Assembly (NCBI GenBank): GCA_037893245.1
Contig: JBAIAA010000784.1
Location: 744,001 to 808,000, forward strand
Length of the DNA: 64,000 nucleotides
DNA from: Crossaster papposus
Taxonomy: Eukaryota > Echinodermata > Asteroidea > Velatida > Solasteridae
Direction: 5' to 3'
Part shown: positions 1-64,000 of the stretch, piece after piece
How the letters are laid out: the number at the start of each line of letters is the position of its first letter
How positions within the stretch are numbered: position 1 is the stretch's first letter
The notes under the pieces: generated by a model
Seen by the model: the letters and a program-made list of their open reading frames with translations, nothing else
Told to the model about the DNA's origin: nothing
Databases searched by the model: none
Made by a program: the position numbers and the translations under genes

Positions 1-28
1 TGTTTGTTGTTTTTCTAAATTTACATGA

Positions 29-100
29 GGCATGGTGGCGCAGTGGAAGCTTGCTGGGCCTATAACCCAGAGTGCCGAGGATCAAAACCTCGTTCTGCTG
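29..100 (+). pseudogene. Cassette A: initiator-tRNA-like with UAU anticodon (type copy)
   Basis: A 72-nt tRNA-shaped cassette. The 5' acceptor arm GGCATGG faces TTCTGCT with a mismatch at the fifth pair and G:U pairs at both ends. The anticodon stem CTGGG/CCCAG is perfect. The loop is CCTATAA, so the anticodon is TAT rather than CAT, in every A copy I read. The D-stem has one mismatch. The T-arm is CGAGG-ATCAAAA-CCTCG, so the B box reads GGATCAAAACC. The discriminator is G rather than A. A T5 run follows at 109-113. About 81 intact A copies exist, normally 401 bp before each B (408 bp where cassette C carries the 7-bp duplication). Probably not a working tRNA: the anticodon changed, but the body is initiator-like and the acceptor is damaged. 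Confidence 0.85.
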
Positions 101-134
101 CTAATAAGTTTTTGGTATGACTTGAAGTACTCGA

Positions 135-206
135 CTCAGAGTGACAAAGTAGACCCTTTCTTGGTCAGTAACCGAGAGTTCGGATGATCACAACCTCGGT
201 CTGCTC
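135..206 (+). pseudogene. Cassette A': strongly decayed initiator-tRNA relic (type copy)
   Basis: This stretch aligns without gaps over all 72 positions to cassette B, with 47 of 72 identical by my hand count. The anticodon stem still pairs (CTTGG/CCGAG with one G:U), but the loop is TCAGTAA, so the anticodon position reads AGT. The 3' end still reads CCTCGGTCTGCT, close to CCTCGCTCTGCT. The D-arm is lost and the T-stem has two mismatches. The A and B boxes are not recognisable. A T4 run lies at 214-217. It is present once per unit between A and C and is as homogeneous as the better cassettes. Best reading: an older tRNA copy trapped in the unit before it was amplified. Confidence 0.8.
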
Positions 207-255
207 AGGATAATTTTGTATTTGATAGGGATTTCATTTTCATTAAAAATAGTTA

Positions 256-327
256 CGCAGAGTAGTGCAGCGGGAGCGTGATGGGCCCATAGCCCAGAGG
301 TCCGAGGACCAAAACCTCGCTTTGCTA
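256..327 (+). tRNA. Cassette C: initiator tRNA-Met-like, CAT anticodon (type copy)
   Basis: 72 nt. Acceptor CGCAGAG/CTTTGCT pairs except for the first pair (C1 against U72) and one G:U; the discriminator is A. The D-stem ATGC/GCGT pairs. The anticodon stem TGGG/CCCA has a mismatch at its outer pair; the loop is CCCATAG with anticodon CAT. The T-arm is CGAGG-ACCAAAA-CCTCG, so the B box (GGACCAAAACC) is off consensus. A T5 run lies at 336-340. The anticodon loop of this cassette is where the array gains or loses 7 bp. Normal copies start 174 bp before each B. Copies around 38-43 kb and 56.1 kb read TAT. Could be a weakly transcribed gene or a pseudogene. Confidence 0.7.
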
Positions 328-429
328 ACTAGGTATTTTTGCTTCACTGCTATTCACATTTAATAAATATTGTAGAATGTTTTTAGAATGTCTGCTTTCA
401 TTTTGTTTGCATTTTCTAAATTTACATGA
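328..429 (+). other. C-to-B spacer (type copy)
   Basis: 102-bp AT-rich spacer repeated in every full unit. It holds the T5 terminator of C, an AATAAATATT stretch about 60-70 bp before B that could act as an upstream TATA-like element, a tandem TAGAATGTTTT/TAGAATGTCTG pair, and ATTTTGTTTGCATTTTC before B. I see no gene in it. The D-to-A spacer (726-829) is its paralogue, with AATAATTATT and TTGTTTGTTG in the corresponding places. Confidence 0.7.
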
Positions 430-436
430 GGCATAG

Positions 437-447
437 TGGCGCAGTTG
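437..447 (+). promoter_or_regulatory. Pol III box A of cassette B
   Basis: TGGCGCAGTTG fits the A-box pattern TRGYNNANNNG and spans the D-arm. The same 11-bp position in A is TGGCGCAGTGG, in C TAGTGCAGCGG and in D TGGTGCAGTGG. The decayed A' and B' cassettes do not keep it. Confidence 0.7.
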
Positions 448-479
448 AAGCGTGCTGGGCCCATAACCCAGAGGTCCGA

Positions 480-490
480 GGATCGAAACC
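480..490 (+). promoter_or_regulatory. Pol III box B of cassette B
   Basis: GGATCGAAACC matches the initiator form of the B box (consensus GGTTCGANNCC, with A54 as in eukaryotic initiator tRNAs). It is the expected TFIIIC contact. D carries GGACCGAAACC, A carries GGATCAAAACC and C carries GGACCAAAACC, so B has the strongest site in the unit. Confidence 0.7.
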
Positions 491-506
491 TCGCTCTGCT
501 AACAAG

Positions 507-511
507 TTTTT
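507..511 (+). terminator. Pol III T5 terminator after cassette B
   Basis: TTTTT begins 6 nt after the discriminator base of B, a usual distance for a Pol III terminator. Cassette A has an equivalent run at 109-113. Confidence 0.65.
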
Positions 512-532
512 GGTATGACATGAGGTACTCGA

Positions 533-604
533 CTCGGAGTGACAAAGTAGACACTTTCTTGGTCAGTACCCGAGAGTTTGGTTGACCACAACCTCGGTCT
601 GCTC
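533..604 (+). pseudogene. Cassette B': decayed initiator-tRNA relic (type copy)
   Basis: Counterpart of A' in the second half-unit, also exactly 72 nt and gapless against B. It keeps CTTGG/CCGAG in the anticodon stem and CCTCGGTCTGCT at the 3' end; the T-stem is more decayed than in A'. Its anticodon loop is TCAGTAC. No T4 run follows closely (TTATTTCC instead), so a Pol III terminator is missing here. Copies normally start 103 bp after each B. In the copies at 59592 and 61193 one base is missing (AAAGTGACAC instead of AAAGTAGACAC). Confidence 0.78.
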
Positions 605-653
605 AGGATAATTATTTCCTTGAAAGTGATTTCATTTTCATTACAAATAGTTA

Positions 654-725
654 CGCAGAGTGGTGCAGTGGGATCGTGATGGGCCCATAACCCAGAGGCC
701 CGAGGACCGAAACCTTGCTCTGCTA
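654..725 (+). tRNA. Cassette D: initiator tRNA-Met-like, CAT anticodon (type copy)
   Basis: 72 nt. The acceptor CGCAGAG/CTCTGCT is Watson-Crick apart from the first position (C1 against U72), the best acceptor in the unit; the discriminator is A. The anticodon stem has a mismatch at its outer pair, and the loop CCCATAA gives CAT. The D-stem GTGC/TCGT has one mismatch. The T-arm is CGAGG-ACCGAAA with CCTCG in most copies; in this copy CCTTG gives a G:U pair. Copies normally start 224 bp after each B, except in the 46.5-51.7 kb half-units. Seven-bp deleted versions are listed separately. Copies that follow B at 18101, 20504, 22099, 23702, 27721 and 29324 begin TACACAG instead of TACGCAG. Confidence 0.72.
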
Positions 726-733
726 AAGAGGTA

Positions 734-738
734 TTTTT
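734..738 (+). terminator. Pol III T5 terminator after cassette D
   Basis: TTTTT lies 9 nt after the end of D, inside GGTATTTTTGC. The paralogous run after C is at 336-340 in an almost identical context. Confidence 0.6.
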
Positions 739-1056
739 GCTTCACTGTTATTCAAATTTAATAATTATTTTAGAATGTTTTTAGAATGTCTGCTTTTATT
801 TTGTTTGTTGTTTTTCAAAATTTACATGAGGCATGGTGGCGCAGTGGAAGCTTGCTGGGCCTATAACCCAGTGTGCCGAGGATCAAAACCTCGTTCTGCT
901 GCTAATAAGTTTTTGGTATGACTTGAAGTACTTGACTCGGAGTGACAAAGTAGACCCTTTCTTGGTCAGTAACCGAGAGTTCGGATGATCACAACCTCGG
1001 TCTGCTCAGGATAATTTTGTATTTGATAGGGATTTCATTTTCATTAAAAATAGTTA

Positions 1057-1135
1057 CGCAGAGTAGTGCAGCGGGAGCGTGATGGGCCCATAGCCCATAG
1101 CCCAGAGGTCCGAGGACCAAAACCTCGCTTTGCTA
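1057..1135 (+). pseudogene. Cassette C with duplicated anticodon loop (79 nt)
   Basis: CCCATAG is present twice in tandem, so the loop cannot form the normal seven-base anticodon loop. This 7-bp gain is what makes an 808-bp unit. The same form starts at 2666, 4275, 5884, 9903, 25130, 26739, 30752 and 32361. The copies at 6692 and 10711 have a second-repeat variant (CATATCCCAG) and are separated by exactly the 4,019-bp higher-order period. Confidence 0.9.
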
Positions 1136-4100
1136 ACTAGGTATTTTTGCTTCACTGCTATTCACATTTAATAAATATTGTAGAATGTTTTTAGAATGTC
1201 TGCTTTCATTTTGTTTGCATTTTCTAAATTTACATGAGGCATAGTGGCGCAGTTGAAGCGTGCTGGGCCCATAACCCAGAGGTCCGAGGATCGAAACCTC
1301 GCTCTGCTAACAAGTTTTTGGTATGACATGAGGTACTCGACTCGGAGTGACAAAGTAGACACTTTCTTGGTCAGTACCCGAGAGTTTGGTTGACCACAAC
1401 CTCGGTCTGCTCAGGATAATTATTTCCTTGGAAGTGATTTCATTTTCATTACAAATAGTTACGCAGAGTGGTGCAGTGGGATCGTGATGGGCCCATAACC
1501 CAGAGGCCCGAGGACCGAAACCTCGCTCTGCTAAAGAGGTATTTTTGCTTCACTGTTATTCAAATTTAATAATTATTTTAGAATGTTTTTAGAATGTCTG
1601 TTTTTATTTTGTTTGTTGTTTTTCTAAATTTACATGAGGCATGGTGGCGCAGTGGAAGCTTGCTGGGCCTATAACCCAGAGTGCCGAGGATCAAAACCTC
1701 GTTCTGCTGCTAATAAGTTTTTGGTATGACTTGAAGTACTCGACTCAGAGTGACAAAGTAAACCCTTTCTTGGTCAGTAACCGAGAGTTCGGATGATCAC
1801 AACCTCGGTCTGCTCAGGATAATTTTGTATTTGATAGGGATTTCATTTTCATTAAAAATAGTTACGCAGAGTAGTGCAGCGGGAGCGTGATGGGCCCATA
1901 GCCCAGAGGTCCGAGGACCAAAACCTCGCTTTGCTAACTAGGTATTTTTGCTTCACTGCTATTCACATTTAATAAATATTGTAGAATGTTTTTAGAATGT
2001 CTGCTTTCATTTTGTTTGCATTTTCTAAATTTACATGAGGCATAGTGGCGCAGTTGAAGCGTGCTGGGCCCATAACCCAGAGGTCCGAGGATCGAAACCT
2101 CCCTCTGCTAACAAGTTTTTGGTATGACATGAGGTACTCGACTCGGAGTGACAAAGTAGACACTTTCTTGGTCAGTACCCGAGAGTTTGGTTGACCACAA
2201 CCTCGGTCTGCTCAGGATAATTATTTCCTTGAAAGTGATTTCATTTTCATTACAAATAGTTACGCAGAGTGGTGCAGTGGGATCGTGATGGGCCCATAAC
2301 CCAGAGGCCCGAGGACCGAAACCTTGCTCTGCTAAAGAGGTATTTTTGCTTCACTGTTATTCAAATGTAATAATTATTTTAGAATGTTTTTAGAATGTCT
2401 GCTTTTATTTTGTTTGTTGTTTTTCAAAATTTACATGAGGCATGGTGGCGCAGTGGAAGCTTGCTGGGCCTATAACCCAGTGTGCCGAGGATCAAAACCT
2501 CGTTCTGCTGCTAATAAGTTTTTGGTATGACTTGAAGTACTCGACTCAGAGTGACAAAGTAGACCCTTTCTTGGTCAGTAACCGAGAGTTCGGATGATCA
2601 CAACCTCGGTCTGCTCAGGATAATTTTGTATTTGATAGGGATTTCATTTTCATTAAAAATAGTTACGCAGAGTAGTGCAGCGGGAGCGTGATGGGCCCAT
2701 AGCCCATAGCCCAGAGGTCCGAGGACCAAAACCTCGCTTTGCTAACTAGGTATTTTTGCTTCACTGCTATTCACATTTAATAAATATTGTAGAATGTTTT
2801 TAGAATGTCTGCTTTCATTTTGTTTGCATTTTCTAAATTTACATGAGGCATAGTGGCGCAGTTGAAGCATGCTGGGCCCATAACCCAGAGGTCCGAGGAT
2901 CGAAACCTCGCTCTGCTAACAAGTTTTTGGTATGACATGAGGTACTCGACTCGGAGTGACAAAGTAGACACTTTCTTGGTCAGTACCCGAGAGTTTGGTT
3001 GACCACAACCTCGGTCTGCTCAGGATAATTATTTCCTTGAAAGTGATTTCATTTTCATTACAAATAGTTACGCAGAGTGGTGCAGTGGGATCGTGATGGG
3101 CCCATAACCCAGAGGCCCGAGGACCAAAACCTCGCTCTGCTAAAGAGGTATTTTTGCTTCACTGTTATTCAAATTTAATAATTATTTTAGAATGTTTTTA
3201 GAATGTCTGCTTTTATTTTGTTTGTTGTTTTTCTAAATTTACATGAGGCATGGTGGCGCAGTGGAAGCTTGCTGGGCCTATAACCCAGAGTGCCGAGGAT
3301 CAAAACCTCGTTCTGCTGCTAATAAGTTTTTGGTATGACTTGAAGTACTCGACTCAGAGTGACAAAGTAGACCCTTTCTTGGTCAGTAACCGAGAGTTCG
3401 GATGATCACAACCTCGGTCTGCTCAGGATAATTTTGTATTTGATAGGGATTTCATTTTCATTAAAAATAGTTACGCAGAGTAGTGCAGCGGGAGCGTGAT
3501 GGGCCCATAGCCCAGAGGTCCGAGGACCAAAACCTCGCTTTGCTAACTAGGTATTTTTGCTTCACTGCTATTCACATTTAATAAATATTGTAGAATGTTT
3601 TTAGAATGTCTGCTTTCATTTTGTTTGCATTTTCTAAATTTACATGAGGCATAGTGGCGCAGTTGAAGCGTGCTGGGCCCATAACCCAGAGGTCCGAGGA
3701 TCGAAACCTCGCTCTGCTAACAAGTTTTTGGTATGACATGAGGTACTCGACTCGGAGTGACAAAGTAGACACTTTCTTGGTCAGTACCCGAGAGTTTGGT
3801 TGACCACAACCTCGGTCTGTTCAGGATAATTATTTCCTTGAAAGTGATTTCATTTTCATTACAAATAGTTACGCAGAGTGGTGCAGTGGGATCGTGATGG
3901 GCCCATAACCCAGAGGCCCGAGGACCGAAACCTCGCTCTGCTAAAGAGGTATTTTTGCTTCACTGTTATTCAAATTTAATAATTATTTTAGAATGTTTTT
4001 AGAATGTCTGCTTTTATTTTGTTTGTTGTTTTTCAAAATTTACGTGAGGCATGGTGGCGCAGTGGAAGCTTGCTGGCCCTATAACCCAGAGTGCCGAGGA

Positions 4101-5049
4101 TCAAAACCTCGTTCTGCTGCTAATAAGTTTTTGGTATGACTTGAAGTACTCGACTCAGAGTGACAAAGTAGACCCTTTCTTGGTCAGTAACCGAGAGTTC
4201 GGATGATCACAACCTCGGTCTGCTCAGGATAATTTTGTATTTGATAGGGATTTCATTTTCATTAAAAATAGTTACGCAGAGTAGTGCAGCGGGAGCGTGA
4301 TGGGCCCATAGCCCATAGCCCAGAGGTCCGAGGACCAAAACCTCGCTTTGCTAACTAGGTATTTTTGCTTCACTGCTATTCACATTTAATAAATATTGTA
4401 GAATGTTTTTAGAATGTCTGCTTTCATTTTGTTTGCATTTTCTAAATTTACATGAGGCATAGTGGCGCAGTTGAAGCGTGCTGGGCCCATAACCCAGAGG
4501 TCCGAGGATCGAAACCTCGCTCTGCTAACAAGTTTTTGGTATGACATGAGGTACTCGACTCGGAGTGACAAAGTAGACACTTTCTTGGTCAGTACCCGAG
4601 AGTTTGGTTGACCACAACCTCGGTCTGCTCAGGATAATTATTTCCTTGAAAGTGATTTCATTTTCATTACAAATAGTTACGCAGAGTGGTGCAGTGGGAT
4701 CGTGATGGGCCCATAACCCAGAGGCCCGAGGACCGAAACCTCGCTCTGCTAAAGAGGTATTTTTGCTTCACTGTTATTCAAATTTAATAATTATTTTAGA
4801 ATGTTTTTAGAATGTCTGCTTTTATTTTGTTTGTTGTTTTTCTAAATTTACATGAGGCATGGTGGCGCAGTGGAAGCTTGCTGGGCCTATAACCCAGAGT
4901 GCCGAGGATCAAAACCTTGTTCTGCTGCTAATAAGTTTTTGGTATGACTTGAAGTACTCGACTCAGAGTGACAAAGTAGACCCTTTCTTGGTCAGTAACC
5001 GAGAGTTCGGATGATCACAACCTCGGTCTGCTCAGGATAATTTTGTATT

Positions 5050-8000
5050 TGATAGGGATTTCATTTTCATTAAAAATAGTTACGCAGAGTAGTGCAGCGG
5101 GAGCGTGATGGGCCCATAGCCCAGAGGTCCGAGGACCAAAACCTCGCTTTGCTAACTAGGTATTTTTGCTTCACTGCTATTCACATTTAATAAATATTGT
5201 AGAATGTTTTTAGAATGTCTGCTTTCATTTTGTTTGCATTTTCTAAATTTACATGAGGCATAGTGGCGCAGTTGAAGCGTGCTGGGCCCATAACCCAGAG
5301 GTCCGAGGATCGAAACCTCGCTCTGCTAACAAGTTTTTGGTATGACATGAGGTACTCGACTCGGAGTGACAAAGTAGACACTTTCTTGGTCAGTACCCGA
5401 GAGTTTGGTTGACCACAACCTCGGTCTGTTCAGGATAATTATTTCCTTGAAAGTGATTTCATTTTCATTACAAATAGTTACGCAGAGTGGTGCAGTGGGA
5501 TCGTGATGGGCCCATAACCCAGAGGCCCGAGGACCGAAACCTCGCTCTGCTAAAGAGGTATTTTTGCTTCACTGTTATTCAAATTTAATAATTATTTTAG
5601 AATGTTTTTAGAATGTCTGCTTTTATTTTGTTTGTTGTTTTTCAAAATTTACGTGAGGCATGGTGGCGCAGTGGAAGCTTGCTGGGCCTATAACCCAGAG
5701 TGCCGAGGATCAAAACCTCGTTCTGCTGCTAATAAGTTTTTGGTATGACTTGAAGTACTCGACTCAGAGTGACAAAGTAGACCCTTTCTTGGTCAGTAAC
5801 CGAGAGTTCGGATGATCACAACCTCGGTCTGCTCAGGATAATTTTGTATTTGATAGGGATTTCATTTTCATTAAAAATAGTTACGCAGAGTAGTGCAGCG
5901 GGAGCGTGATGGGCCCATAGCCCATAGCCCAGAGGTCCGAGGACCAAAACCTCGCTTTGCTAACTAGGTATTTTTGCTTCACTGCTATTCACATTTAATA
6001 AATATTGTAGAATGTTTTTAGAATGTCTGCTTTCATTTTGTTTGCATTTTCTAAATTTACATGAGGCATAGTGGCGCAGTTGAAGCGTGCTGGGCCCATA
6101 ACCCAGAGGTCCGAGGATCGAAACCTCGCTCTGCTAACAAGTTTTTGGTATGACATGAGGTACTCGACTCGGAGTGACAAAGTAGACACTTTCTTGGTCA
6201 GTACCCGAGAGTTTGGTTGACCACAACCTCGGTCTGCTCAGGATAATTATTTCCTTGAAAGTGATTTCATTTTCATTACAAATAGTTACGCAGAGTGGTG
6301 CAGTGGGATCGTGATGGGCCCATAACCCAGAGGCCCGAGGACCGAAACCTCGCTCTGCTAAAGAGGTATTTTTGCTTCACTGTTATTCAAATTTAATAAT
6401 TATTTTAGAATGTTTTTAGAATGTCTGCTTTTATTTTGTTTGTTGTTTTTCTAAATTTACATGAGGCATGGTGGCGCAGTGGAAGCTTGCTGGGCCTATA
6501 ACCCAGAGTGCCGAGGATCAAAACCTTGTTCTGCTGCTAATAAGTTTTTGGTATGACTTGAAGTACTCGACTCAGAGTGACAAAGTAGACCCTTTCTTGG
6601 TCAGTAACCGAGAGTTCGGATGATCACAACCTCGGTCTGCTCAGGATAATTTTGTATTTGATAGGGATTTCATTTTCATTAAAAATAGTTACGCAGAGTA
6701 GTGCAGCGGGAGCGTGATGGGCCCATAGCCCATATCCCAGAGGTCCGAGGACCAAAACCTCGCTTTGCTAACTAGGTATTTTTGCTTCACTGCTATTCAC
6801 ATTTAATAAATATTGTAGAATGTTTTTAGAATGTCTGCTTTCATTTTGTTTGCATTTTCTAAATTTACATGAGGCATAGTGGCGCAGTTGAAGCGTGCTG
6901 GGCCCATAACCCTGAGGTCCGAGGATCGAAACCTCGCTCTGCTAACAAGTTTTTGGTATGACATGAGGTACTCGACTCGGAGTGACAAAGTAGACACTTT
7001 CTTGGTCAGTACCCGAGAGTTTGGTTGACCACAACCTCGGTCTGCTCAGGATAATTATTTCCTTGAAAGTGATTTCATTTTCATTACAAATAGTTACGCA
7101 GAGTGGTGCAGTGGGATCGTGATGGGCCCATAACCCAGAGGCCCGAGGACCGAAACCTCGCTCTGCTAAAGAGGTATTTTTGCTTCACTGTTATTCAAAT
7201 TTAATAATTATTTTAGAATGTTTTTAGAATGTCTGCTTTTATTTTGTTTGTTGTTTTTCTAAATTTACATGAGGCATGGTGGCGCAGTGGAAGCTTGCTG
7301 GGCCTATAACCCAGAGTGCCGAGGATCAAAACCTCGTTCTGCTGCTAATAAGTTTTTGGTATGACTTGAAGTACTCGACTCAGAGTGACAAAGTAGACCC
7401 TTTCTTGGTCAGTAACCGAGAGTTCGGATGATCACAACCTCGGTCTGCTCAGGATAATGTTGTTTTTGATAGGGATTTCATTTTCATTAAAAATAGTTAC
7501 GCAGAGTAGTGCAGCGGGAGCGTGATGGGCCCATAGCCCAGAGGTCCGAGGACCAAAACCTCGCTTTGCTAACTAGGTATTTTTGCTTCACTGCTATTCA
7601 CATTTAATAAATATTGTAGAATGTTTTTAGAATGTCTGCTTTCATTTTGTTTGCATTTTCTAAATTTACATGAGGCATAGTGGCGCAGTTGAAGCGTGCT
7701 GGGCCCATAACCCAGAGGTCCGAGGATCGAAACCTCGCTCTGCTAACAAGTTTTTGGTATGACATGAGGTACTCGACTCGGAGTGACAAAGTAGACACTT
7801 TCTTGGTCAGTACCCGAGAGTTTGGTTGACCACAACCTCGGTCTGCTCAGGATAATTATTTCCTTGAAAGTGATTTCATTTTCATTACAAATAGTTACGC
7901 AGAGTGGTGCAGTGGGATCGTGATGGGCCCATAACCCAGAGGCCCGAGGACCGAAACCTCGCTCTGCTAAAGAGGTATTTTTGCTTCACTGTTATTCAAA

Positions 8001-46400: not shown

Positions 46401-46474
46401 ATTTAATAATTATTTTAGAATGTTTTTAGAATGTCTGCTTTTATTTTGTTTGTTGTTTTTCTAAATTTACATGA

Positions 46475-49289
46475 GGCATGGTGGCGCAGTGGAAGCTTGC
46501 TGGGCCTATAACCCAGAGTGCCGAGGATCAAAACCTCGTTCTGCTGCTAATAAGTTTTTGGTATGACTTGAAGTACTCGACTCAGAGTGACAAAGTAGAC
46601 CCTTTCTTGGTCAATAACCGAGAGTTCGGATGATCACAACCTCGGTCTGCTCAGGATAATTTTGTATTTGATAGGGATTTCATTTTCATTACAAATAGTT
46701 ACGCAGAGTAGTGCAGTGGGATCGTGATGGGCCCATAACCCAGAGGCCCGAGGACCGAAACCTCGCTCTGCTAAAGAGGTATTTTTGCTTCACTGTTATT
46801 CAAATTTAATAATTATTTTAGAATGTTTTTAGAATGTCTGCTTTTATTTTGTTTGTTGTTTTTCTAAATTTACATGAGGCATGGTGGCGCAGTGGAAGCT
46901 TGCTGGGCCTATAACCCAGAGTGCCGAGGATCAAAACCTCGTTCTGCTGCTAATAAGTTGTTGGTATGACTTGAAGTACTCGACTCAGAGTGACAAAGTA
47001 GACCCTTTCTTGGTCAGTAACCGAGAGTTCGGATGATCACAACCTCGGTCTGCTCAGGATAATTTTGTATTTGATAGGGATTTCATTTTCATTAAAAATA
47101 GTTACGCAGAGTAGTGCAGCGGGAGCGTGATGGGCCCATAGCCCAGAGGTCCGAGGACCAAAACCTCACTTTGCTAACTAGGTATTTTTGCTTCACTGCT
47201 ATTCACATTTAATAAATATTGTAGAATGTTTTTAGAATGTCTGCTTTCATTTTGTTTGCATTTTCTAAATTTACATGAGGCATAGTGGCGCAGTTGAAGC
47301 GTGCTGGGCCCATAACCCAGAGGTCCGAGGATCGAAACCTCGCTCTGCTAACAAGTTTTTGGTATGACATGAGGTACTCGACTCAGAGTGACAAAGTAGA
47401 CACTTTCTTGGTCAGTACCCGAGAGTTTGGTTGACCACAACCTCGGTCTGCTCAGGATAATTATTTCCTTGAAAGTGATTTCATTTTCATTACAAATAGT
47501 TACGCAGAGTGGTGCAGTGGGATTGTGATGGGCCCATAACCCAGAGGCCCGAGGACCGAAACCTCGCTCTGCTAAAGCTAAAGAGGTATTTTTGCTTCAC
47601 TGTTATTCAAATATAATAATTATTTTAGAATGTTTTTAGAATGTCTGCTTTTATTTTGTTTGTTGTTTTTCTAAATTTACATGAGGCATGGTGGCGCAGT
47701 GGAAGCTTGCTGGGCCTATAACCCAGAGTGCCGAGGATCAAAACCTCGTTCTGCTGCTAATAAGTTTTTGGTATGACTTGAAGTACTCGACTCAGAGTGA
47801 CAAAGTAGACCCTTTCTTGGTCAGTAACCGAGAGTTCGGATGATCACAACCTCGGTCTGCTCAGGATAATTTTGTATTTGATAGGGATTTCATTTTCATT
47901 ACAAATAGTTACGCAGAGTAGTGCAGTGGGATCGTGATGGGCCCATAACCCAGAGGCCCGAGGACCGAAACCTCGCTCTGCTAAAGAGGTATTTTTGCTT
48001 CACTGTTATTCAAATTTAATAATTATTTTAGAATGTTTTTAGAATGTCTGCTTTTATTTTGTTTGTTGTTGTTCTAAATTTACATGAGGCATGGTGGCGC
48101 AGTGGAAGCTTGCTGGGCCTATAACCCAGAGTGCCGAGGATCAAAACCTCGTTCTGCTGCTAATAAGTTTTTGGTATGACTTGAAGTACTCGACTCAGAG
48201 TGACAAAGTAGACCCTTTCTTGGTCAGTAACCGAGAGTTCGGATGATCACAACCTCGGTCTGCTCAGGATAATTTTGTATTTGATAGGGATTTCATTTTC
48301 ATTACAAATAGTTACGCAGAGTAGTGCAGTGGGATCGTGATGGGCCCATAACCCAGAGGCCCGAGGACCGAAACCTCGCTCTGCTAAAGAGGTATTTTTG
48401 CTTCACTGTTATTCAAATTTAATAATTATTTTAGAATGTTTTTAGAATGTCTGCTTTTATTTTGTTTGTTGTTTTTCTAAATTTACATGAGGCATGGTGG
48501 CGCAGTGGAAGCTTGCTGGGCCTATAACCCAGAGTGCCGAGGATCAAAACCTCGTTCTGCTGCTAATAAGTTTTTGGTATGACTTGAAGTACTCGACTCA
48601 GAGTGACAAAGTAGACCCTTTCTTGGTCAGTAACCGAGAGTTCGGATGATCACAACCTCGGTCTGCTCAGGATAATTTTGTATTTGATAGGGATTTCATT
48701 TTCGTTAAAAATAGTTACGCAGAGTAGTGCAGCGGGAGCGTGATGGGCCCATAGCCCAGAGGTCCGAGGACCAAAACCTCGCTTTGCTAACGGTATTTTT
48801 GCTTCACTGCTATTCACATTTAATAAATATTGTAGAATGTTTTTAGAATGTCTGCTTTCATTTTGTTTGCATTTTCTAAATTTACATGAGGCATAGTGGC
48901 GCAGTTGAAGCGTGCTGGGCCCATAACCCAGAGGTCCGAGGATCAAAACCTCGCTCTGCTAACAAGTTTTTGGTATGACATGAGGTACTCGACTCGGAGT
49001 GACAAAGTAGACACTTTCTTGGTCAGTACCCGAGAGTTTGGTTGACCACAACCTCGGTCTGCTCAGGATAATTATTTCCTTGAAAGTGATTTCATTTTCT
49101 TTACAAATAGTTACGCAGAGTGGTGCAGTGGGATCGTGATGGGCCCATAACCCAAAGGCCCGAGGACCGAAACCTCGCTCTGCTAAAGAGGTATTTTTGC
49201 TTCACTGTTATTCAAATTTAATAATTATTTTAGAATGTTTTTAGAATGTCTGCTTTTATTTTGTTTGTTGTTTTTCTAAATTTACATGA
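46475..49289 (+). repeat. Half-unit-rich higher-order repeat, copy 1 (2,815 bp)
   Basis: Successive A starts are 46475, 46878, 47685, 48088, 48491 and 49290, so spacing runs 403, 807, 403, 403, 799. The 403-bp steps are half-units made of A, A' and one C/D hybrid, with B and B' missing. The 807-bp unit has the CTAAAG duplication; the 799-bp unit has CTAACGG (2 bp shorter) after C. Relative to copy 2 there is one additional half-unit. Confidence 0.87.
46702..46773 (+). tRNA. C/D hybrid initiator-tRNA-like cassette in a half-unit
   Basis: Starts CGCAGAGTAGTGCAG like C, then continues GTGGGATCG and finishes like D with the CCCATAA loop, ACCGAAA T-loop and CTCTGCT. The preceding ATTACAAAT is D-type while the block before that (GTATTTGATAGGG) is C-type. 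The crossover therefore fell near the 5' end of the tRNA body. Further copies start at 47912, 48315, 49517 and 50727. Confidence 0.85.
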
Positions 49290-54700: not shown

Positions 54701-57700
54701 AAGTGATTTCATTTTCATTACAAATAGTTACGCAGAGTGGTGCAGTGGGATCGTGATGGGCCCATAACCCAGAGGCCCGAGGACCGAAACCTCGCTCTGC
54801 TAAAGAGGTATTTTTGCTTCACTGTTATTCAAATTTAATAATTATTTTAGAATGTTTTTAGAATGTCTGCTTTTATTTTGTTTGTTGTTTTTCTAAATTT
54901 ACATGAGGCATGGTGGCGCAGTGGAAGCTTGCTGGGCCTATAACCCAGCGTGCCGAGGATCAAAACCTCGTTCTGCTGCTAATAAGTTTTTGGTATGACT
55001 TGAAGTACTCGACTCAGAGTGACAAAGTAGACCCTTTCTTGGTCAGTAACCGAGAGTTCGGATGATCACGACCTCGGTCTGCTCAGGATAATTTTGTATT
55101 TGATAGGGATTTCATTTTCATTAAAAATAGTTACGCAGAGTAGTGCAGCGGGAGCGTGATGGGCCCATAGCCCAGAGGTCCGAGGACCAAAACCTCGCTT
55201 TGCTAACTAGGTATTTTTGCTTCACTGCTATTCACATTTAATAAATATTGTAGAATGTTTTTAGAATGTCTGCTTTCATTTTGTTTGCATTTTCTAAATT
55301 TACATGAGGCATAGTGGCGCAGTTGAAGCGTGCTGGGCCTATAGCCCAGAGGTCTGAGGACCAAAACCTCGCTTTGCTAACTAGGTATTTTTGCTTCACT
55401 GCTATTCACATTTAATAAATATTGTAGAATGTTTTTAGAATGTCTGCTTTCATTTTGTTTGCATTTTCTAAATTTACATGAGGCATAGTGGCGCAGTTGA
55501 AGCGTGCTGGGCCCATAACCCAGAGGTCCGAGGATCGAAACCTCGCTCTGCTAACAAGTTTTTGGTATGACATGAGGTACTCGACTCGGAGTGACAAAGT
55601 AGACACTTTCTTGGTCAGTACCCGAGAGTTTGGTTGACCACAACCTCGGTCTGCTCAGGATAATTATTTCCTTGAAAGTGATTTCATTTTCATTACAAAT
55701 AGTTACGCAGAGTGGTGCAGTGGGATCGTGATGGGCCCATAACCCAGAGGCCCGAGGACCGAAACCTCGCTCTGCTAAAGAGGTATTTTTGCTTCACTGT
55801 TATTCAAATTTAATAATTATTTTAGAATGTTTTTAGAATGTCTGCTTTTATTTTGTTTGTTGTTTTTCTAAATTTACATGAGGCATGGTGGCGCAGTGGA
55901 AGCTTGCTGGGCCTATAACCCAGCGTGCCGAGGATCAAAACCTCGTTCTGCTGCTAATAAGTTTTTGGTATGACTTGAAGTACTCGACTCAGAGTGACAA
56001 AGTAGACCCTTTCTTGGTCAGTAACCGAGAGTTCGGATGATCACAACCTCGGTCTGCTCAGGATAATTTTGTATTTGATAGGGATTTCATTTTCATTAAA
56101 AATAGTTACGCAGAGTAGTGCAGCGGGAGCGTGATGGGCCTATAGCCCAGAGGTCCGATGACCAAAACCTCGCTTTGCTAACTAGGTATTTTTGCTTCAC
56201 TGCTATTCACATTTAATAAATATTGTAGAATGTTTTTAGAATGTCTGCTTTCATTTTGTTTGCATTTTCAGAATTTACATGAGGCATAGTGGCGCAGTTG
56301 AAGCGTGCTGGGCCCATAACCCAGAGGTCCGAGGATCGAAACCTCGCTCTGCTAACAAGTTTTTGGTATGACATGAGGTACTCGACTCGGAGTGACAAAG
56401 TAGACACTTTCTTGGTCAGTACCCGAGAGTTTGGTTGACCACAACCTCGGTCTGCTCAGGATAATTATTTCCTTGAAAGTGATTTCATTTTCATTACAAA
56501 TAGTTACGCAGAGTGGTGCAGTGGGATCGTGATGGGCCCATAACCCAGAGGCCCGAGGACCGAAACCTCGCTCTGCTAAAGAGGTATTTTTGCTTCACTG
56601 TAATTCAAATTTAATAATTATTTTAGAATGTTTTTATAATGTCTGCTTTTATTTTGTTTGTTGTTTTTCTAAATTTACATGAGGCATGGTGGCGCAGTGG
56701 AAGCTTGCTGGGCCTATAACCCAGAGTGCCGAGGATCAAAACCTCGTTCTGCTGCTAATAAGTTTTTGGTATGACTTGAAGTACTCGACTCAGAGTGACA
56801 AAGTAGACCCTTTCTTGGTCAGTAACCGAGAGTTCGGATGATCACAACCTCGGTCTGCTCAGGATAATTTTGTATTTGATAGGGATTTCATTTTCATTAA
56901 AAAAATAGTTACGCAGAGTAGTGCAGCGGGAGCGTGATGGGCCCATAGCCCAGAGGTCCGAGGGCCAAAACCTCGCTTTGCTAACTAGGTATTTTTGCTT
57001 CACTGCTATTCACATTTAATAAATATTGTAGAATGTTTTTAGAATGTCTGCTTTCATTTTGTTTGCATTTTCTAAATTTACATGAGGCATAGTGGCGCAG
57101 TTGAAGCGTGCTGGGCCCATAACCCAGAGGTCCGAGGATCGAAACCTCGCTCTGCTAACAAGTTTTTGGTATGACATGAGGTACTCGACTCGGAGTGACA
57201 AAGTAGACACTTTCTTGGTCAGTACCCGAGAGTTTGGTTGACCACAACCTCGGTCTGCTCAGGATAATTATTTCCTTGAAAGTGATTTCATTTTCATTAC
57301 AAATAGTTACGCAGAGTGGTGCAGTGGGATCGTGATGGGCCCATAACCCAGAGACCCGAGGACCGAAACCTCGCTCTGCTAAAGAGGTATTTTTGCTTCA
57401 CTGTTATTCAAATTTAATAATTATTTTAGAATGTTTTTAGAATGTCTGCTTTTATTTTGTTTGTTGTTTTTCTAAATTTACATGAGGCATGGTGGCGCAG
57501 TGGAAGCTTGCTGGGCCTATAACCCAGAGTGCCGAGGATCAAAACCTCGTTCTGCTGCTAATAAGTTTTTGGTATGACTTGAAGTACTCGACTCAGAGTG
57601 ACAAAGTAGACCCTTTCTTGGTCAGTAACCGAGAGTTCGGATGATCACAACCTCGGTCTGCTCAGGATAATTTTGTATTTGATAGGGATTTCATTTTCAT

Positions 57701-60700
57701 TAAAAATAGTTACGCAGAGTATTGCAGCGGGAGCGTGATGGGCCCATAGCCCAGAGGTCCGAGGGCCAAAACCTCGCTTTGCTAACTAGGTATTTTTGCT
57801 TCACTGCTATTCACATTTAATAAATATTGTAGAATGTTTTTAGAATGTCTGCTTTCATTTTGTTTGCATTTTCTAAATTTACATGAGGCATAGTGGCGCA
57901 GTTGAAGCGTGCTGGGCCCATAACCCAGAGTTCCGAGGATCGAAACCTCGCTCTGCTAACAAGTTTTTGGTATGACATGAGGTACTCGACTCGGAGTGAC
58001 AAAGTAGACACTTTCTTGGTCAGTACCCGAGAGTTTGGTTGACCACAACCTCGGTCTGCTCAGGATAATTATTTCCTTGAAAGTGATTTCATTTTCATTA
58101 CAAATAGTTACGCAGAGTGGTGCAGTGGGATCGTGATGGGCCCATAACCCAGAGGCCCGAGGACCGAAACCTCGCTCTGCTAAAGAGGTATTTTTGCTTC
58201 ACTGTTATTCAAATTTAATAATTATTTTAGAATGTTTTTAGAATGTCTGCTTTTATTTTGTTTGTTGTTTTTCTAAATTTACATGAGGCATGGTGGCGCA
58301 GTGGAAGCTTGCTGGGCCTATAACCCAGAGTGCCGAGGATCAAAACCTCGTTCTGCTGCTAATAAGTTTTTGGTATGACTTGAAGTACTCGACTCAGAGT
58401 GACAAAGTAGACCCTTTCTTGGTCAGTAACCGAGAGTTCGGATGATCACAACCTCGGTCTGCTCAGGATAATTTTGTATTTGATAGGGATTTCATTTTCA
58501 TTAAAAATAGTTACGCAGAGTAGTGCAGCGGGAGCGTGATGGGCCCATAGCCCAGAGGTCCGAGGACCAAAACCTCGCTTTGCTAACTAGGTATTTTTGC
58601 TTCACTGCTATTCACATTTAATAAATATTGTAGAATGTTTTTAGAATGTCTGCTTTCATTTTGTTTGCATTTTCTAAATTTACATGAGGCATAGTGGCGC
58701 AGTTGAAGCGTGCTGGGCCCATAACCCAGAGTTCCGAGGATCGAAACCTCGCTCTGCTAACAAGTTTTTGGTATGACATGAGGTACTCGACTCGGAGTGA
58801 CAAAGTAGACACTTTCTTGGTCAGTACCCGAGAGTTTGGTTGACCACAACCTCGGTCTGCTCAGGATAATTATTTCCTTGAAAGTGATTTCATTTTCATT
58901 ACAAATAGTTACGCAGAGTGGTGCAGTGGGATCGTGATGGGCCCATAACCCAGAGGCCCGAGGACCGAAACCTCGCTCTGCTAAAGAGGTATTTTTGCTT
59001 CACTGTTATTCAAATTTAATAATTATTTTAGAATGTTTTTAGAATGTCTGCTTTTATTTTGTTTGTTGTTTTTCTAAATTTACATGAGGCATGGTGGCGC
59101 AGTGGAAGCTTGCTGGGCCTATAACCCAGAGTGCCGAGGATCAAAACCTCGTTCTGCTGCTAATAAGTTTTTGGTATGACTTGAAGTACTCGACTCAGAG
59201 TGACAAAGTAGACCCTTTCTTGGTCAGTAACCGAGAGTTCGGATGATCACAACCTCGGTCTGCTCAGGATAATTTTGTATTTGATAGGGATTTCATTTTC
59301 ATTAAAAATAGTTACGCAGAGTAGTGCAGCGGGAGCGTGATGGGCCCATAGCCCAGAGGTCCGAGGACCAAAACCTCGCTTTGCTAACTAGGTATTTTTG
59401 CTTCACTGCTATTCACATTTAATAAATATTGTAGAATGTTTTTAGAATGTCTGCTTTTATTTTGTTTGCATTTTCTAAATTTACATGAGGCATAGTGGCG
59501 CAGTTGAAGCGTGCTGGGCCCATAACCCAGAGGTCCGAGGATCGAAACCTCGCTCTGCTAACAAGTTTTTGGTATGACATGAGGTACTCGACTCGGAGTG
59601 ACAAAGTGACACTTTCTTGGTCAGTACCCGAGAGTTTGGTTGACCACAACCTCGATCTGCTCAGGATAATTATTTCCTTGAAAGTGATTTCATTTTCATT
59701 ACAAATAGTTACGCAGAGTGGTGCAGTGGGATCGTGATGGGCCCATAACCCAGAGGCCCGAGGACCGAAACCTCGCTCTGCTAAAGAGGTATTTTTGCTT
59801 CACTGTTATTCAAATTTAATAATTATTTTAGAATGTTTTTAGAATGTCTGCTTTTATTTTGTTTGTTGTTTTTCTAAATTTACATGAGGCATGGTGGCGC
59901 AGTGGAAGCTTGCTGGGCCTATAACCCAGAGTGCCGAGGATCAAAACCTCGTTCTGCTGCTAATAAGTTTTTGGTATGACTTGAAGTACTCGACTCAGAG
60001 TGACAAAGTAGACCCTTTCTTGGTCAGTAACCGAGAGTTCGGATGATCACAACCTCAGTCTGCTCAGGATAATTTTGTATTTGATAGGGATTTCATTTTC
60101 ATTAAAAATAGTTACGCAGAGTAGTGCAGCGGGAGCGTGATGGGCCCATAGCCCAGAGGTCCGAGGGCCAAAACCTCGCTTTGCTAACTAGGTATTTTTG
60201 CTTCACTGCTATTCACATTTAATAAATATGGTAGAATGTTTTTAGAATGTCTGCTTTCATTTTGTTTGCATTTTCTAAATTTACATGAGGCATAGTGGCG
60301 CAGTTGAAGCGTGCTGGGCCCATAACCCAGAGTTCCGAGGATCGAAACCTCGCTCTGCTAACAAGTTTTTGGTATGACATGAGGTACTCGACTCGGAGTG
60401 ACAAAGTAGACACTTTCTTGGTCAGTACCCGAGAGTTTGGTTGACCACAACCTCGGTCTGCTCAGGATAATTATTTCCTTGAAAGTGATTTCATTTTCAT
60501 TACAAATAGTTACGCAGAGTGGTGCAGTGGGATCGTGATGGGCCCATAACCCAGAGGCCCGAGGACCGAAACCTCGCTCTGCTAAAGAGGTATTTTTGCT
60601 TCACTGTTATTCAAATTTAATAATTATTTTAGAATGTTTTTAGAATGTCTGCTTTTATTTTGTTTGTTGTTTTTCTAAATTTACATGAGGCATGGTGGCG

Positions 60701-62690
60701 CAGTGGAAGCTTGCTGGGCCTATAACCCAGAGTGCCGAGGATCAAAACCTCGTTCTGCTGCTAATAAGTTTTTGGTATGACTTGAAGTACTCGACTCAGA
60801 GTGACAAAGTAGACCCTTTCTTGGTCAGTAACCGAGAGTTCGGATGATCACAACCTCGGTCTGCTCAGGATAATTTTGTATTTGATAGGGATTTCATTTT
60901 CATTAAAAATAGTTACGCAGAGTAGTGCAGCGGGAGCGTGATGGGCCCATAGCCCAGAGGTCCGAGGACCAAAACCTCGCTTTGCTAACTAGGTATTTTT
61001 GCTTCACTGCTATTCACATTTAATAAATATTGTAGAATATTTTTAGAATGTCTGCTTTCATTTTGTTTGCATTTTCTAAATTTACATGAGGCATAGTGGC
61101 GCAGTTGAAGCGTGCTGGGCCCATAACCCAGAGGTCCGAGGATCGAAACCTCGCTCTGCTAACAAGTTTTTGGTATGACATGAGGTACTCGACTCGGAGT
61201 GACAAAGTGACACTTTCTTGGTCAGTACCCGAGAGTTTGGTTGACCACAACCTCGATCTGCTCAGGATAATTATTTCCTTGAAAGTGATTTCATTTTCAT
61301 TACAAATAGTTACGCAGAGTGGTGCAGTGGGATCGTGATGGGCCCATAACCCAGAGGCCCGAGGACCGAAACCTCGCTCTGCTAAAGAGGTATTTTTGCT
61401 TCACTGTTATTCAAATTTAATAATTATTTTAGAATGTTTTTAGAATGTCTGCTTTTATTTTGTTTGTTGTTTTTCTAAATTTACATGAGGCATGGTGGCG
61501 CAGTGGAAGCTTGCTGGGCCTATAACCCAGAGTGCCGAGGATCAAAACCTCGTTCTGCTGCTAATAAGTTTTTGGTATGACTTGAAGTACTCGACTCAGA
61601 GTGACAAAGTAGACCCTTTCTTGGTCAGTAACCGAGAGTTCGGATGATCACAACCTCGGTCTGCTCAGGATAATTTTGTATTTGATAGGGATTTCATTTT
61701 CATTAAAAATAGTTACGCAGAGTAGTGCAGCGGGAGCGTGATGGGCCCATAGCCCAGAGGTCCGAGGACCAAAACCTCGCTTTGCTAACTAGGTATTTTT
61801 GCTTCACTGCTATTCACATTTAATAAATATTGTAGAATGTTTTTAGAATGTCTGCTTTCATTTTGTTTGCATTTTCTAAATTTACATGAGGCATAGTGGC
61901 GCAGTTGAAGCGTGCTGGGCCCATAACCCAGAGGTCCGAGGATCGAAACCTCGCTCTGCTAACAAGTTTTTGGTATGACATGAGGTACTCGACTCGGAGT
62001 GACAAAGTAGACACTTTCTTGGTCAGTACCCGAGAGTTTGGTTGACCACAACCTCGGTCTGCTCAGGATAATTATTTCCTTGAAAGTGATTTCATTTTCA
62101 TTACAAATAGTTACGCAGAGTGGTGCAGTGGGATCGTGATGGGCCCATAACCCAGAGACCCGAGGACCAAAACCTCGCTCTGCTAAAGAGGTATTTTTGC
62201 TTCACTGTTATTCAAATTTAATAATTATTTTAGAATGTTTTTAGAATGTCTGCTTTTATTTTGTTTGTTGTTTTTCTAAATTTACATGAGGCATGGTGGC
62301 GCAGTGGAAGCTTGCTGGGCCTATAACCCAGAGTGCCGAGGATCAAAACCTCGTTCTGCTGCTAATAAGTTTTTGGTATGACTTGAAGTACTCGACTCAG
62401 AGTGACAAAGTAGACCCTTTCTTGGTCAGTAACCGAGAGTTCGGATGATCACAACCTCGGTCTGCTCAGGATAATTTTGTATTTGATAGGGATTTCATTT
62501 TCATTAAAAATAGTTACGCAGAGTAGTGCAGCGGGAGCGTGATGGGCCCATAGCCCAGAGGTCCGAGGACCAAAACCTCGCTTTGCTAACTAGGTATTTT
62601 TGCTTCACTGCTATTCACATATAATAAATATTGTAGAATGTTTTTAGAATGTCTGCTTTCATTTTGTTTGCATTTTCTAAATTTACATGC
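51702..62690 (+). repeat. Near-regular 801-bp units, weak dimer at the far end
   Basis: B copies from 52103 to 61890 are mostly 801 bp apart. Small length changes are explained by CCCTTTTCTTGG (+1, 54234), ATTAAAAAAATAG (+2, about 56899) and AAAGTGACAC (-1, 59605 and 61206). The last change together with CTCGATCTG recurs at 1,601 bp (B 59489 and 61090), a local dimer. GTTTGTTTGACC occurs after B at 52103 and 52904 only. CCAGCGTGCC in A occurs at about 54946 and 55920. Confidence 0.75.
55308..55379 (+). pseudogene. B/C chimeric cassette in a 174-bp insertion
   Basis: Begins as B (GGCATAGTGGCGCAGTTGAAG) and ends as C (CCTATAG loop, GTCTGAGGACC, CAAAACC, CTTTGCTAACTAGG). It is followed by a second C-to-B spacer and a normal B at 55482. 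The insertion equals the C-to-B distance, so this looks like unequal exchange between B of one repeat and C of another. Confidence 0.88.
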
Positions 62691-63262
62691 GGCATAGTGG
62701 CGCAGTTGAAGCATGCTGGGCCCATAACCCAGAGGTCCGAGGATCGAAACCTCGCTCTGCTAACAAGTTTTTGGTATGACATGAGGTACTCGACTCGGAG
62801 TGACAAAGTAGACACTTTCTTGGTCAGTACCCGAGAGTTTGGTTGACCACAACCTCGGTCTGCTCAGGATAATTATTTCCTTGAAAGTGATTTCATTTTC
62901 ATTACAAAAAGTTACGCAGCGTGGTGCAGTGGGATCGTGATGGGCCCATAACCCAGAGGTCCGAGGACCAAAACCTCGCTTTGCTAACTAGGTATTTTTG
63001 CCTCACTGCTATTCACATATAATAAATATTGTAGAATGTTTTTAGAATGTCTGCTTTCATTTTGTTTGCATTTTCTAAATTTACATGCGGCATAGTGGCG
63101 CAGTTGAAGCATGCTGGGCCCATAACCCAGAGGTCCGAGGACCAAAACCTCGCTTTGCTAACTAGGTATTTTTGCCTCACTGCTATTCACATTTAATAAA
63201 TATTGTAGAATGTTTTTAGAATGTCTGCTTTCATTTTGTTTGCATTTTCTAAATTTACATGC
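62691..63262 (+). repeat. Rearranged stretch with two chimeric cassettes
   Basis: Order: B (62691), B' (about 62794), a D/C chimera (62915-62986), a B/C chimera (63089-63160), then a normal B at 63263. The D/C chimera starts GCAGCGTGGTGCAG and ends with AGGTCCGAGGACC and CTTTGCT as in C. TTTGCCTCACTG and ACATGCGGCATAG mark the copied spacers. The unit that would carry A and A' between these two B copies is absent. Confidence 0.85.
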
Positions 63263-63486
63263 GGCATAGTGGCGCAGTTGAAGCATGCTGGGCCCATAAC
63301 CCAGAGGTCCGAGGATCGAAACCTCGCTCTGCTAACAAGTTTTTGGTATGACATGAGGTACTCGACTCGGAGTGACAAAGTAGACACTTTCTTGGTCAGT
63401 ACCCGAGAGTTTGGTTGACCACAACCTCGGTCTGCTCAGGATAATTATTTCCTTGAAAGTGATTTCATTTTCATTACAAAAAGTTA

Positions 63487-64000
63487 CGCAGCGTGGTGCA
63501 GTGGGATCGTGATGGGCCCATAACCCAGAGGCCCGAGGACCGAAACCTCGCTCTGCTAAAGAGGTATTTTTGCTTCACTGTTATTCAAATTTAATAATTA
63601 TTTTATAATGTTTTTATAATGTCTGCTTTTATTTTGTTTGTTGTTTTTCTAAATTTACATGAGGCATGGTGGCGCAGTGGAAGCTTGCTGGGCCTATAAC
63701 CCAGAGTGCCGAGGATCAAAACCTCGTTCTGCTGCTAATAAGTTTTTGGTATGACTTGAAGTACTCGACTCAGAGTGACAAAGTAGACCCTTTCTTGGTC
63801 AGTAACCGAGAGTTCGGATGGTCACAACCTCGGTCTGCTCAGGATAATTTTGTATTTGATAGGGATTTCATTTTCATTAAAAATAGTTACGCAGAGTAGT
63901 GCAGCGGGAGCGTGATGGGCCCATAGCCCAGAGGTCCGAGGACCAAAACCTCGCTTTGCTAACTAGGTATTTTTGCTTCACTGCTATTCACATTTAATAA
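63487..64000 (+). repeat. Return to regular register, cut by window edge
   Basis: D at 63487 (with GCAGCGTGG), A at 63663, A' at 63769 and C at 63890-63961 follow with normal spacing. TTTTATAATGTTTTTATAATG in the D-to-A spacer differs from the usual TTTTAGAATG. The window ends in the C-to-B spacer, so the array continues. Confidence 0.88.

What the first reader, a model, noticed from the sequence alone, without database searches (positions are those of the whole stretch)
1..64000. A satellite built entirely from initiator tRNA-Met genes, six cassettes per 801-bp unit
About 470 cassettes of 72 nt, all on one strand, fill 64 kb with nothing else. Clustered tRNA arrays and tRNA-derived SINEs are known, but a long homogeneous satellite whose unit holds six graded copies of the initiator tRNA is unusual. 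I know of no described example with this design.
Basis: partly seen in the sequence, partly recalled or inferred. Interest (0 to 1): 0.9.

Follow-up and report, generated by a model that had tools for sequence, protein, structure and literature searches.

The report
Starfish satellite of decayed initiator tRNAs
This stretch of DNA, probably from a starfish, is a long repeat made of worn-out copies of the transfer RNA gene that starts every protein; related repeats elsewhere in the same genome still hold many perfect copies, which makes it a good place to watch an essential gene turn into bulk repetitive DNA.

Summary
The window is one head-to-tail array with an 801-bp higher-order unit (two ~400-bp monomers, 11% different) holding six initiator-tRNA (iMet)-derived cassettes; 478 were counted, all on the + strand. 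None is an intact gene: the best type (A2) is 69/72 identical with one broken pair; the B types are 45-50/72 with 8-9 broken pairs.

The window is a small part of a family with 20,808 exact matches to a B-cassette 18-mer (about 8.3 Mb at ~400 bp each, 0.8% of a 1.02-Gb genome). The mitochondrial code points to an echinoderm, the gene order to a starfish. In sister arrays (C146, C262) the same unit carries perfect iMet copies. The genome holds 1,281 exact 72-nt iMet sequences; five form an ordinary cluster (C885) with unrelated flanks and identical bodies.

Within the arrays the tRNA parts vary as much as spacers or dead cassettes. Best explanation: a neutral or selfish satellite, founded on a locus with one live and two altered iMet copies and spread by unequal exchange. 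Transcription, chromosomal position and excess over other tRNAs were not tested. Ten full-text searches listed no paper on an iMet satellite.

The parts
1..801 (+). first complete 801-bp higher-order unit in the window (two ~400-bp monomers)
   Evidence: autocorrelation 0.66 at 801; full-length matches at 97-100% on this and further contigs
29..100 (+). cassette A1: iMet-derived, anticodon position reads TAT, 62/72 to intact iMet, 2 broken pairs
135..206 (+). cassette B1: strongly decayed iMet, 50/72, 8 of 21 pairs broken, not matched by Rfam
256..327 (+). cassette C1: iMet-derived, 62/72, 2 broken pairs
430..501 (+). cassette A2: best preserved, 69/72, 1 broken pair, 49.8 bits; G instead of A at position 1
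533..604 (+). cassette B2: strongly decayed iMet, 45/72, 9 of 21 pairs broken
654..725 (+). cassette C2: iMet-derived, 65/72 and 3 broken pairs for the type consensus
46475..48562 (+). stretch with hybrid monomers (A1-B1-C2, A1 cassettes 403 bp apart): mark of out-of-register exchange
   Evidence: order string; A1-type positions 46475, 46878, 47685, 48088, 48491
55308..55553 (+). two A2-like cassettes 174 bp apart (tRNA plus ~102-bp spacer module duplicated)
   Evidence: positions 55308 and 55482; period 174
63089..63334 (+). second place with two A2-like cassettes 174 bp apart
   Evidence: positions 63089 and 63263; period 174
1..64000 (+). whole window: part of a longer + strand array that was read from about C784:720,368 to 848,000

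Best explanation
A tRNA-gene-derived satellite DNA. (1) From sequence comparison: an ancestral ~400-bp locus held three iMet copies in a row: A (an exact iMet), B (already a pseudogene) and C (lightly changed). (2) INFERRED: this locus was amplified at DNA level by unequal crossing-over and gene conversion, the tRNA cassettes themselves acting as short homologies (steps of 174, ~400, 572 and 801 bp). (3) SHOWN: two branches exist. One (C146, C262) keeps a perfect iMet in many units. The other (window type, on many contigs) has an 801-bp dimer unit in which A is no longer exact. (4) SHOWN on the samples read: within both branches the tRNA parts are no better conserved than spacers or the dead B cassette. 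(5) INFERRED: the arrays are mostly silent passengers, and a separate small cluster of five iMet genes (C885), which looks constrained, supplies the cell. Whether the 1,276 other exact copies are transcribed is unknown.
For: Periodicity and cassette order. Hybrid monomers and 174-bp duplications; 174/398/572 steps in the intact branch. Perfect iMet inside the same unit on C146 (three in L041, one in L040); exact 72-mers also on C262 (two listed). Genome-wide counts: 1,281 exact iMet, 20,808 B 18-mers, 6,024 A1-type 34-mers, reversed-pattern controls 0 in each. The three B types share 20 derived bases with the same letter, the three C types share 4 changes, A1/A2 share 2, so B was dead before the family spread while A was exact. 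No constraint in the window: A1 versus A2 consensus differs by 8.3-10.1% in the three cassettes (20 of 213 columns) and 3.8-14.3% in the four spacers (18 of 183). No constraint in the intact branch sample: A 2.68%, B 2.63%, A-B spacer 1.78% deviation over 29 distinct units. C885: five iMet bodies 72/72 identical while homologous flanks differ by 9-19% upstream and 11-15% downstream; flanks unrelated to the satellite (best E 0.027).
Against: A has stayed exactly iMet in the intact branch although the branches differ by about 6-8% in spacers and B; my rough estimate gives 2-3 expected changes in A (P about 0.06-0.12), so weak constraint or conversion from real genes is not excluded. The sample was sorted: 44 of 65 units kept because their A cassette was close to iMet, which lowers the A figure, and units were anchored on the B start, which lowers the B figure. 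T-runs of 4 or more follow 315 of 319 A and C cassettes, so transcription could still end properly. Sequence read from the intact branch is 26.6 kb of C146 and two 0.7-kb pieces of C262. No expression, chromatin or chromosome data.
Confidence: 0.74

Rival explanations
1. The intact branch is a working multi-copy iMet gene array, for example an oocyte supply, and the window is its decayed relative. Pol III would transcribe the perfect A copies from their internal boxes and stop at the T5 run.
For: 1,281 exact 72-nt copies; the three exact ones in L041 score 58.7 bits with no broken pair; T5 run a few nt after A cassettes.
Against: A cassettes in the intact-branch sample carry as many changes as the dead B cassette, including stem and anticodon-loop changes; a separate, apparently constrained C885 cluster exists; the upstream stretch shared by four of five C885 genes has no match in the satellite.
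Confidence: 0.12
2. The arrays have a structural role (centromere or pericentromere, TFIIIC-type boundary) and the tRNA boxes are kept for protein binding, not for making tRNA.
For: Long homogeneous arrays with a higher-order unit and blocks in both orientations, as in many centromeric satellites; tRNA and 5S genes are said to be associated with fission-yeast centromeres (passage in PMC5437419).
Against: The canonical B box is kept only in A2 (61 of 79) and in none of the 81 A1, 78 C1, 81 C2, 82 B1 or 77 B2 cassettes; cassettes are not better conserved than spacers. Position on chromosomes unknown.
Confidence: 0.1
3. A SINE-derived satellite: a tRNA-headed retroposon that became tandem, as described in scaled reptiles (PMC10702118, Background section read).
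For: tRNA-derived parts with Pol III-like boxes in a tandem repeat.
Against: Three separate iMet copies per monomer, each with its own flanks; no simple-repeat tail is seen in the consensus. LINE similarity and dispersed single copies were not tested.
Confidence: 0.03
4. Assembly artefact: an over-collapsed or over-expanded repeat.
For: Long tandem repeats are hard to assemble.
Against: Units of one type differ by about 1%, slightly more when far apart; hybrids and blocks in both orientations occur, and the family lies on many contigs with other sequence between arrays. Exact lengths may still be wrong.
Confidence: 0.01

Closest known systems
OAX / satellite I of Xenopus, PolIII/TAN of the newt Cynops, Rana/polIII of green frogs (listed in PMC10702118, Background section read)
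   Same: tandem repeats described there as holding a tRNA-derived or tRNA-like segment
   Different: here three iMet copies per ~400-bp monomer, six per 801-bp unit, and sister units with a perfect iMet; the paper does not describe such a design for those repeats in the section read
5S rDNA of pikes, Esox (PMC5437419; 12 passages seen)
   Same: a Pol III gene amplified to tens of thousands of copies with higher-order organisation
   Different: different gene; that paper reports no significant erosion of the 5S copies, whereas the window branch is eroded and B and C are altered in both branches
Tandem tRNA gene arrays and clusters: Entamoeba, zebrafish, stickleback, Nematostella (PMC2888827, 12 passages seen); human 1q23.3 tRNA VNTR (PMC4041453, search listing only)
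   Same: tRNA genes in clusters or tandem, mostly parallel, with fast copy-number turnover
   Different: the window carries no intact gene and one tRNA ancestry only; units are short (~400 bp) and the window array was read over 127 kb
SINE-derived satellites of scaled reptiles (PMC10702118, one section and two passages seen)
   Same: satellite with tRNA ancestry
   Different: no SINE body or tail recognised here; gene duplication with flanks fits better than retroposition (inference)

Membership tests
satellite DNA | long head-to-tail tandem array, homogenised units | tested here: met
   801-bp unit across 64 kb, about 1% within-type divergence
satellite DNA | heterochromatic (centromeric, pericentromeric or subtelomeric) position | not testable with these tools
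   contigs unplaced; no FISH or chromatin data
functional initiator tRNA gene | intact 72-nt body with all stems, CAT anticodon, A at position 1 opposite U72 (the last point recalled) | tested here: not met
   0 exact copies in the window; A2 has G at 1 and a T-C mismatch at pair 5-67, others worse. Met by sister-array copies and by C885
tRNA-derived repeat | covariance-model score as tRNA | tested here: met
   217 RF00005 matches over the gathering score in the window; B types not matched over 1-3300, their ancestry shown by alignment instead
tandem tRNA gene array (Entamoeba or zebrafish kind) | units contain intact tRNA genes kept by selection | tested here: not met
   window: no intact gene and no excess conservation of cassettes; intact branch: genes intact in part, no excess conservation over 29 distinct units of one contig
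SINE-derived satellite | SINE body, LINE-derived part and simple-repeat tail; dispersed copies | tested here: inconclusive
   no tail in the consensus by eye; LINE similarity and dispersed copies not tested
Pol III-transcribed unit | A box, B box and T-run terminator | tested here: inconclusive
   T>=4 within 20 nt: A1 78/81, A2 79/79, C1 78/78, C2 80/81, B1 72/82, B2 6/77 (background 0.55); loose A box in 80/81 A1, 67/79 A2, 66/78 C1, 81/81 C2, 0 B; B box only in 61/79 A2; transcription not testable

The most novel reading that the evidence does not exclude
The family is a two-state system for an essential gene: megabase arrays that still carry over a thousand perfect initiator tRNA genes act as a developmentally switched store (egg or early embryo), kept by copying from within rather than by selection on each copy, while the window arrays are its dead, heterochromatic continuation.
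Probability: 0.1. Interest if true: 0.8.

Novelty: new variant of a known kind. Interest (0 to 1): 0.52.

Why it matters
It shows one genome with three stages side by side: a small, apparently constrained iMet cluster; arrays with many perfect copies under no visible constraint; and decayed higher-order arrays of very roughly 5 Mb (6,024 A1-type matches). That gives a series for how an essential Pol III gene becomes satellite DNA. It also raises a testable question: if over a thousand perfect initiator tRNA genes exist, how does the cell keep them from flooding translation initiation, or does it use them? It is also a practical caution, since tRNA counts from such genomes (for example the 6,779 tRNAs reported for the starfish Asterias amurensis, PMC11090083, passage) might be inflated by satellites; that was not tested here.

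Tried and rejected
Selection on window cassettes: cassette and spacer divergence between the two monomer types and against the intact-branch consensus show no difference in favour of cassettes. A first version had B-cassette borders off by 6-8 nt and an alignment that inflated one spacer to 21.4%; one search replaces it.

Selection on intact-branch A cassettes: a first count without sorting cassette lineages gave a misleadingly high A diversity. It was repeated by lineage with B as inner control: of 65 units 21 were set aside as not of the A lineage or out of register, 44 kept, 29 of them distinct. The sorting favours low values for A, and the anchoring favours low values for B.

That tells nothing, so the excess of iMet over other tRNAs is not measured.

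Isolated iMet genes hidden in the counts: 35 copies of a 3' part with a non-A next base. 33 lie on contigs known to carry the family, which does not prove that each lies in an array; of these I read four places, and printed one (C262), an array. The two others (C271, C833) proved to be arrays. Five copies of the 5' part with non-A before it: C885 is a stand-alone gene; the one on C262 is array; three on C146 were not read. A further 84 have A at -1 and non-G at -2: 36 on C146, 44 on C262, 4 on C885. A dispersed gene with GA just upstream would have been missed.

CpG decay as a sign of methylation: transitions at CpG 2.07% versus 0.39% at other C in A2 monomers, but 0.73% versus 0.48% in A1. 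The cells are not independent, so I draw nothing firm.

Literature: ten searches; none of the papers listed reports an initiator-tRNA satellite by its title or abstract start. Long result lists were capped (for example 25 of 315), and subscription papers are mostly not held. Leads opened and dropped: PMC5874043 (scallop satellites), PMC9367165 (brittle star genome), PMC10505914 (initiator tRNA only mentioned with nuclear stress bodies).
Full report
What is in the window. The 64 kb lie at 744,001-808,000 of contig C784 (1,141,936 bp) of a 1,023,315,904-bp genome in 1,841 contigs. Autocorrelation peaks at 801 bp (0.66), with 403 and 398 as sub-peaks. The unit is a dimer of two ~400-bp monomers, about 11% different from each other and about 1% different within each type. 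Each monomer holds three 72-nt cassettes, A, B and C. BLAST found 478 cassettes (A 160, B 159, C 159), all on +. The order A1-B1-C1-A2-B2-C2 is kept in 468 of 477 neighbour pairs. The widest gap between cassettes is 141 nt, so there is no sizeable foreign insert.

Are the cassettes tRNA-like? Rfam gives 217 tRNA matches above its gathering score in the window (150 printed), the best at 49.8 bits. Against the intact iMet of this same genome the type consensuses score: A1 62/72, A2 69/72, C1 62/72, C2 65/72, B1 50/72, B2 45/72. Of 21 stem pairs, 2, 1, 2, 3, 8 and 9 respectively are broken. The B types are not matched by Rfam even at E <= 5 in 1-3300, but their ungapped alignment to iMet exceeds all 2,000 letter shuffles of each. 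No exact iMet is present in the window.

Which organism. The 16,330-bp contig C1841 carries COX1 with 13 TGA codons. Under table 9 (AAA = Asn) positions that I recall as conserved Asn read Asn; under table 5 they read Lys. A tRNA-Pro lies on the opposite strand just before COX1, which I recall as the starfish order. I therefore take it as an echinoderm, probably a starfish. The species was not identified.

The family beyond the window. An 18-mer of the B cassette occurs 20,808 times in the genome (8,804 + 12,004; control 0). In the window it occurs 147 times beside 159 B cassettes. At ~400 bp per unit this is about 8.3 Mb, 0.8% of the genome; units with a changed 18-mer are not counted. The window-type A1 34-mer occurs 6,024 times, very roughly 4.8 Mb if each stands for one 801-bp unit. 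On C784, 20 stretches of 9-10 kb were read. They show + array without a large break from 720,368 to 848,000 (window included), - array at 600-610 and 640-644.9 kb, - array with other sequence in between in the six stretches read from 858 to 960 kb, and + array at 1,020-1,030 kb. Four stretches (680-690, 700-710, 980-990, 1,080-1,090 kb) hold none.

The intact branch. A 35-nt iMet 5' part occurs 2,623 times (111 + 2,512; control 0), and the complete 72-nt iMet 1,281 times (1,240 + 41; control 0). On C146 at 4.32-4.43 Mb the same A-B-C unit (398 bp, plus a 174-bp tRNA-and-spacer module) holds perfect iMet at A in some units (58.7 bits, no broken pair) beside a dead B and a changed C. Listed positions reach over C146 4.31-4.43 and 5.44-6.71 Mb and C262 0.99-2.55 Mb; exact 72-mers on C262 are shown by two places. 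The lists are capped at 100 places. I read sequence only from two parts of C146 (4,320,175-4,336,806 and 4,424,001-4,434,000) and two pieces of C262, so continuity over those spans is inferred from spacing. The two C262 pieces hold a copy with one change (56.4 bits) and a shortened one. The intact-branch unit consensus is about 91% identical to window units.

The ordinary genes. C885 carries at least five iMet genes at 563-574 kb. All five are 72/72 identical. Three neighbours share flanks that differ by 9-11% upstream and 11-15% downstream; a fourth shares 63-75 bp upstream at 81-83%; the fifth shares no flank beyond an A-rich run. None of the flanks matches the satellite well (best E 0.027). 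Identical bodies inside diverged flanks suggest constraint, so these are the likely housekeeping genes.

Constraint in the arrays. In the window, A1 and A2 monomer consensuses differ by 10.1% (A), 8.3% (B) and 9.7% (C), together 20 of 213 columns, against 3.8%, 8.8%, 14.3% and 9.5% in the four spacers, together 18 of 183 (gaps left out). Against the intact-branch consensus the A cassette of A1 changed by 11.1% and that of A2 by 4.2%, with spacers at 6.5-10.0% and 3.2-6.9%. In the intact branch, over 29 distinct A-lineage units, deviation is 2.68% in A, 2.63% in B and 1.78% in the A-B spacer, with changes in stems and anticodon loop (the sorting of units is told under Tried and rejected). So intact copies seem intact because their founder was, not because each is kept.

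Order of events. All three B types share 20 derived bases, the three C types 4 changed sites, and the two window A types 2, while the intact-branch A consensus has none. Hence, before the family spread, B was already a pseudogene, C slightly changed, and A an exact iMet. B and A descend from the same gene, and one changed at about 30% of sites while the other changed at none, so A was then most simply a live gene (inference). Amplification followed. Hybrid monomers (A1-B1-C2), 174-bp duplications and a missing A1 in the window, and the 174/398/572-bp steps in the intact branch, point to out-of-register exchange with tRNA cassettes as homology (inference).

Function. I commit to a neutral or selfish satellite with passenger tRNA remnants (0.74). 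A working store of iMet in the intact branch (0.12) and a structural role (0.10) stay open. T-runs follow nearly all A and C cassettes (315 of 319), but spacers are T-rich (background 0.55), and copies are not independent. The canonical B box survives only in A2 (61 of 79).

Known relatives. Tandem repeats with a tRNA-like part are known in Xenopus (OAX), newts and frogs (PMC10702118, Background section). Massive amplification of a Pol III gene with higher-order structure is known for 5S rDNA in pikes (PMC5437419, passages). tRNA gene clusters are reviewed in PMC2888827 (passages). Asterias amurensis is reported with 6,779 tRNAs and 1.8% satellite (PMC11090083, passages), which may be related but was not tested. 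None of the papers listed in the ten searches reports an initiator-tRNA satellite by its title or abstract start.

Changes made on checking: the number of irregular neighbour pairs is 9, not 10; the segment comparison was redone with corrected borders; perfect copies on C262 were checked.

Noticed in passing
L021 (C784:875001-885000), 41-5627: Four inserts of about 0.70-0.85 kb of an unrelated minisatellite, separated by 0.75-0.80 kb of satellite: a composite array of two repeats amplified together.
   Followed up: partly
L011:4408-6612, L012:2607-4022, L028:3953-5998: Transposon-like open frames between the arrays: 734 aa with a weak DUF4218 match, a 471-aa frame without a match, and 681 aa with a weak Phage_integrase match, both matches below the curated cut-off.
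   Followed up: partly
C8:5208663-5210009 (L042) and C8:2872001-2873343: COX1 family matches without TGA stops on contig C8, unlike the mitochondrial one: contig C8 may be a bacterial symbiont or contaminant in the assembly.
   Followed up: no
C885:562901-571000 (L052, L053): Four of five ordinary iMet genes share an upstream stretch (TTCGCGTGCAATGAA...) about 50 bp before the gene, with no match in the satellite: candidate upstream promoter element.
   Followed up: partly
window, A2 monomers: Transitions at CpG are about five times those at other C (2.07% versus 0.39%), less so in A1 monomers (0.73% versus 0.48%): possible trace of methylation.
   Followed up: partly
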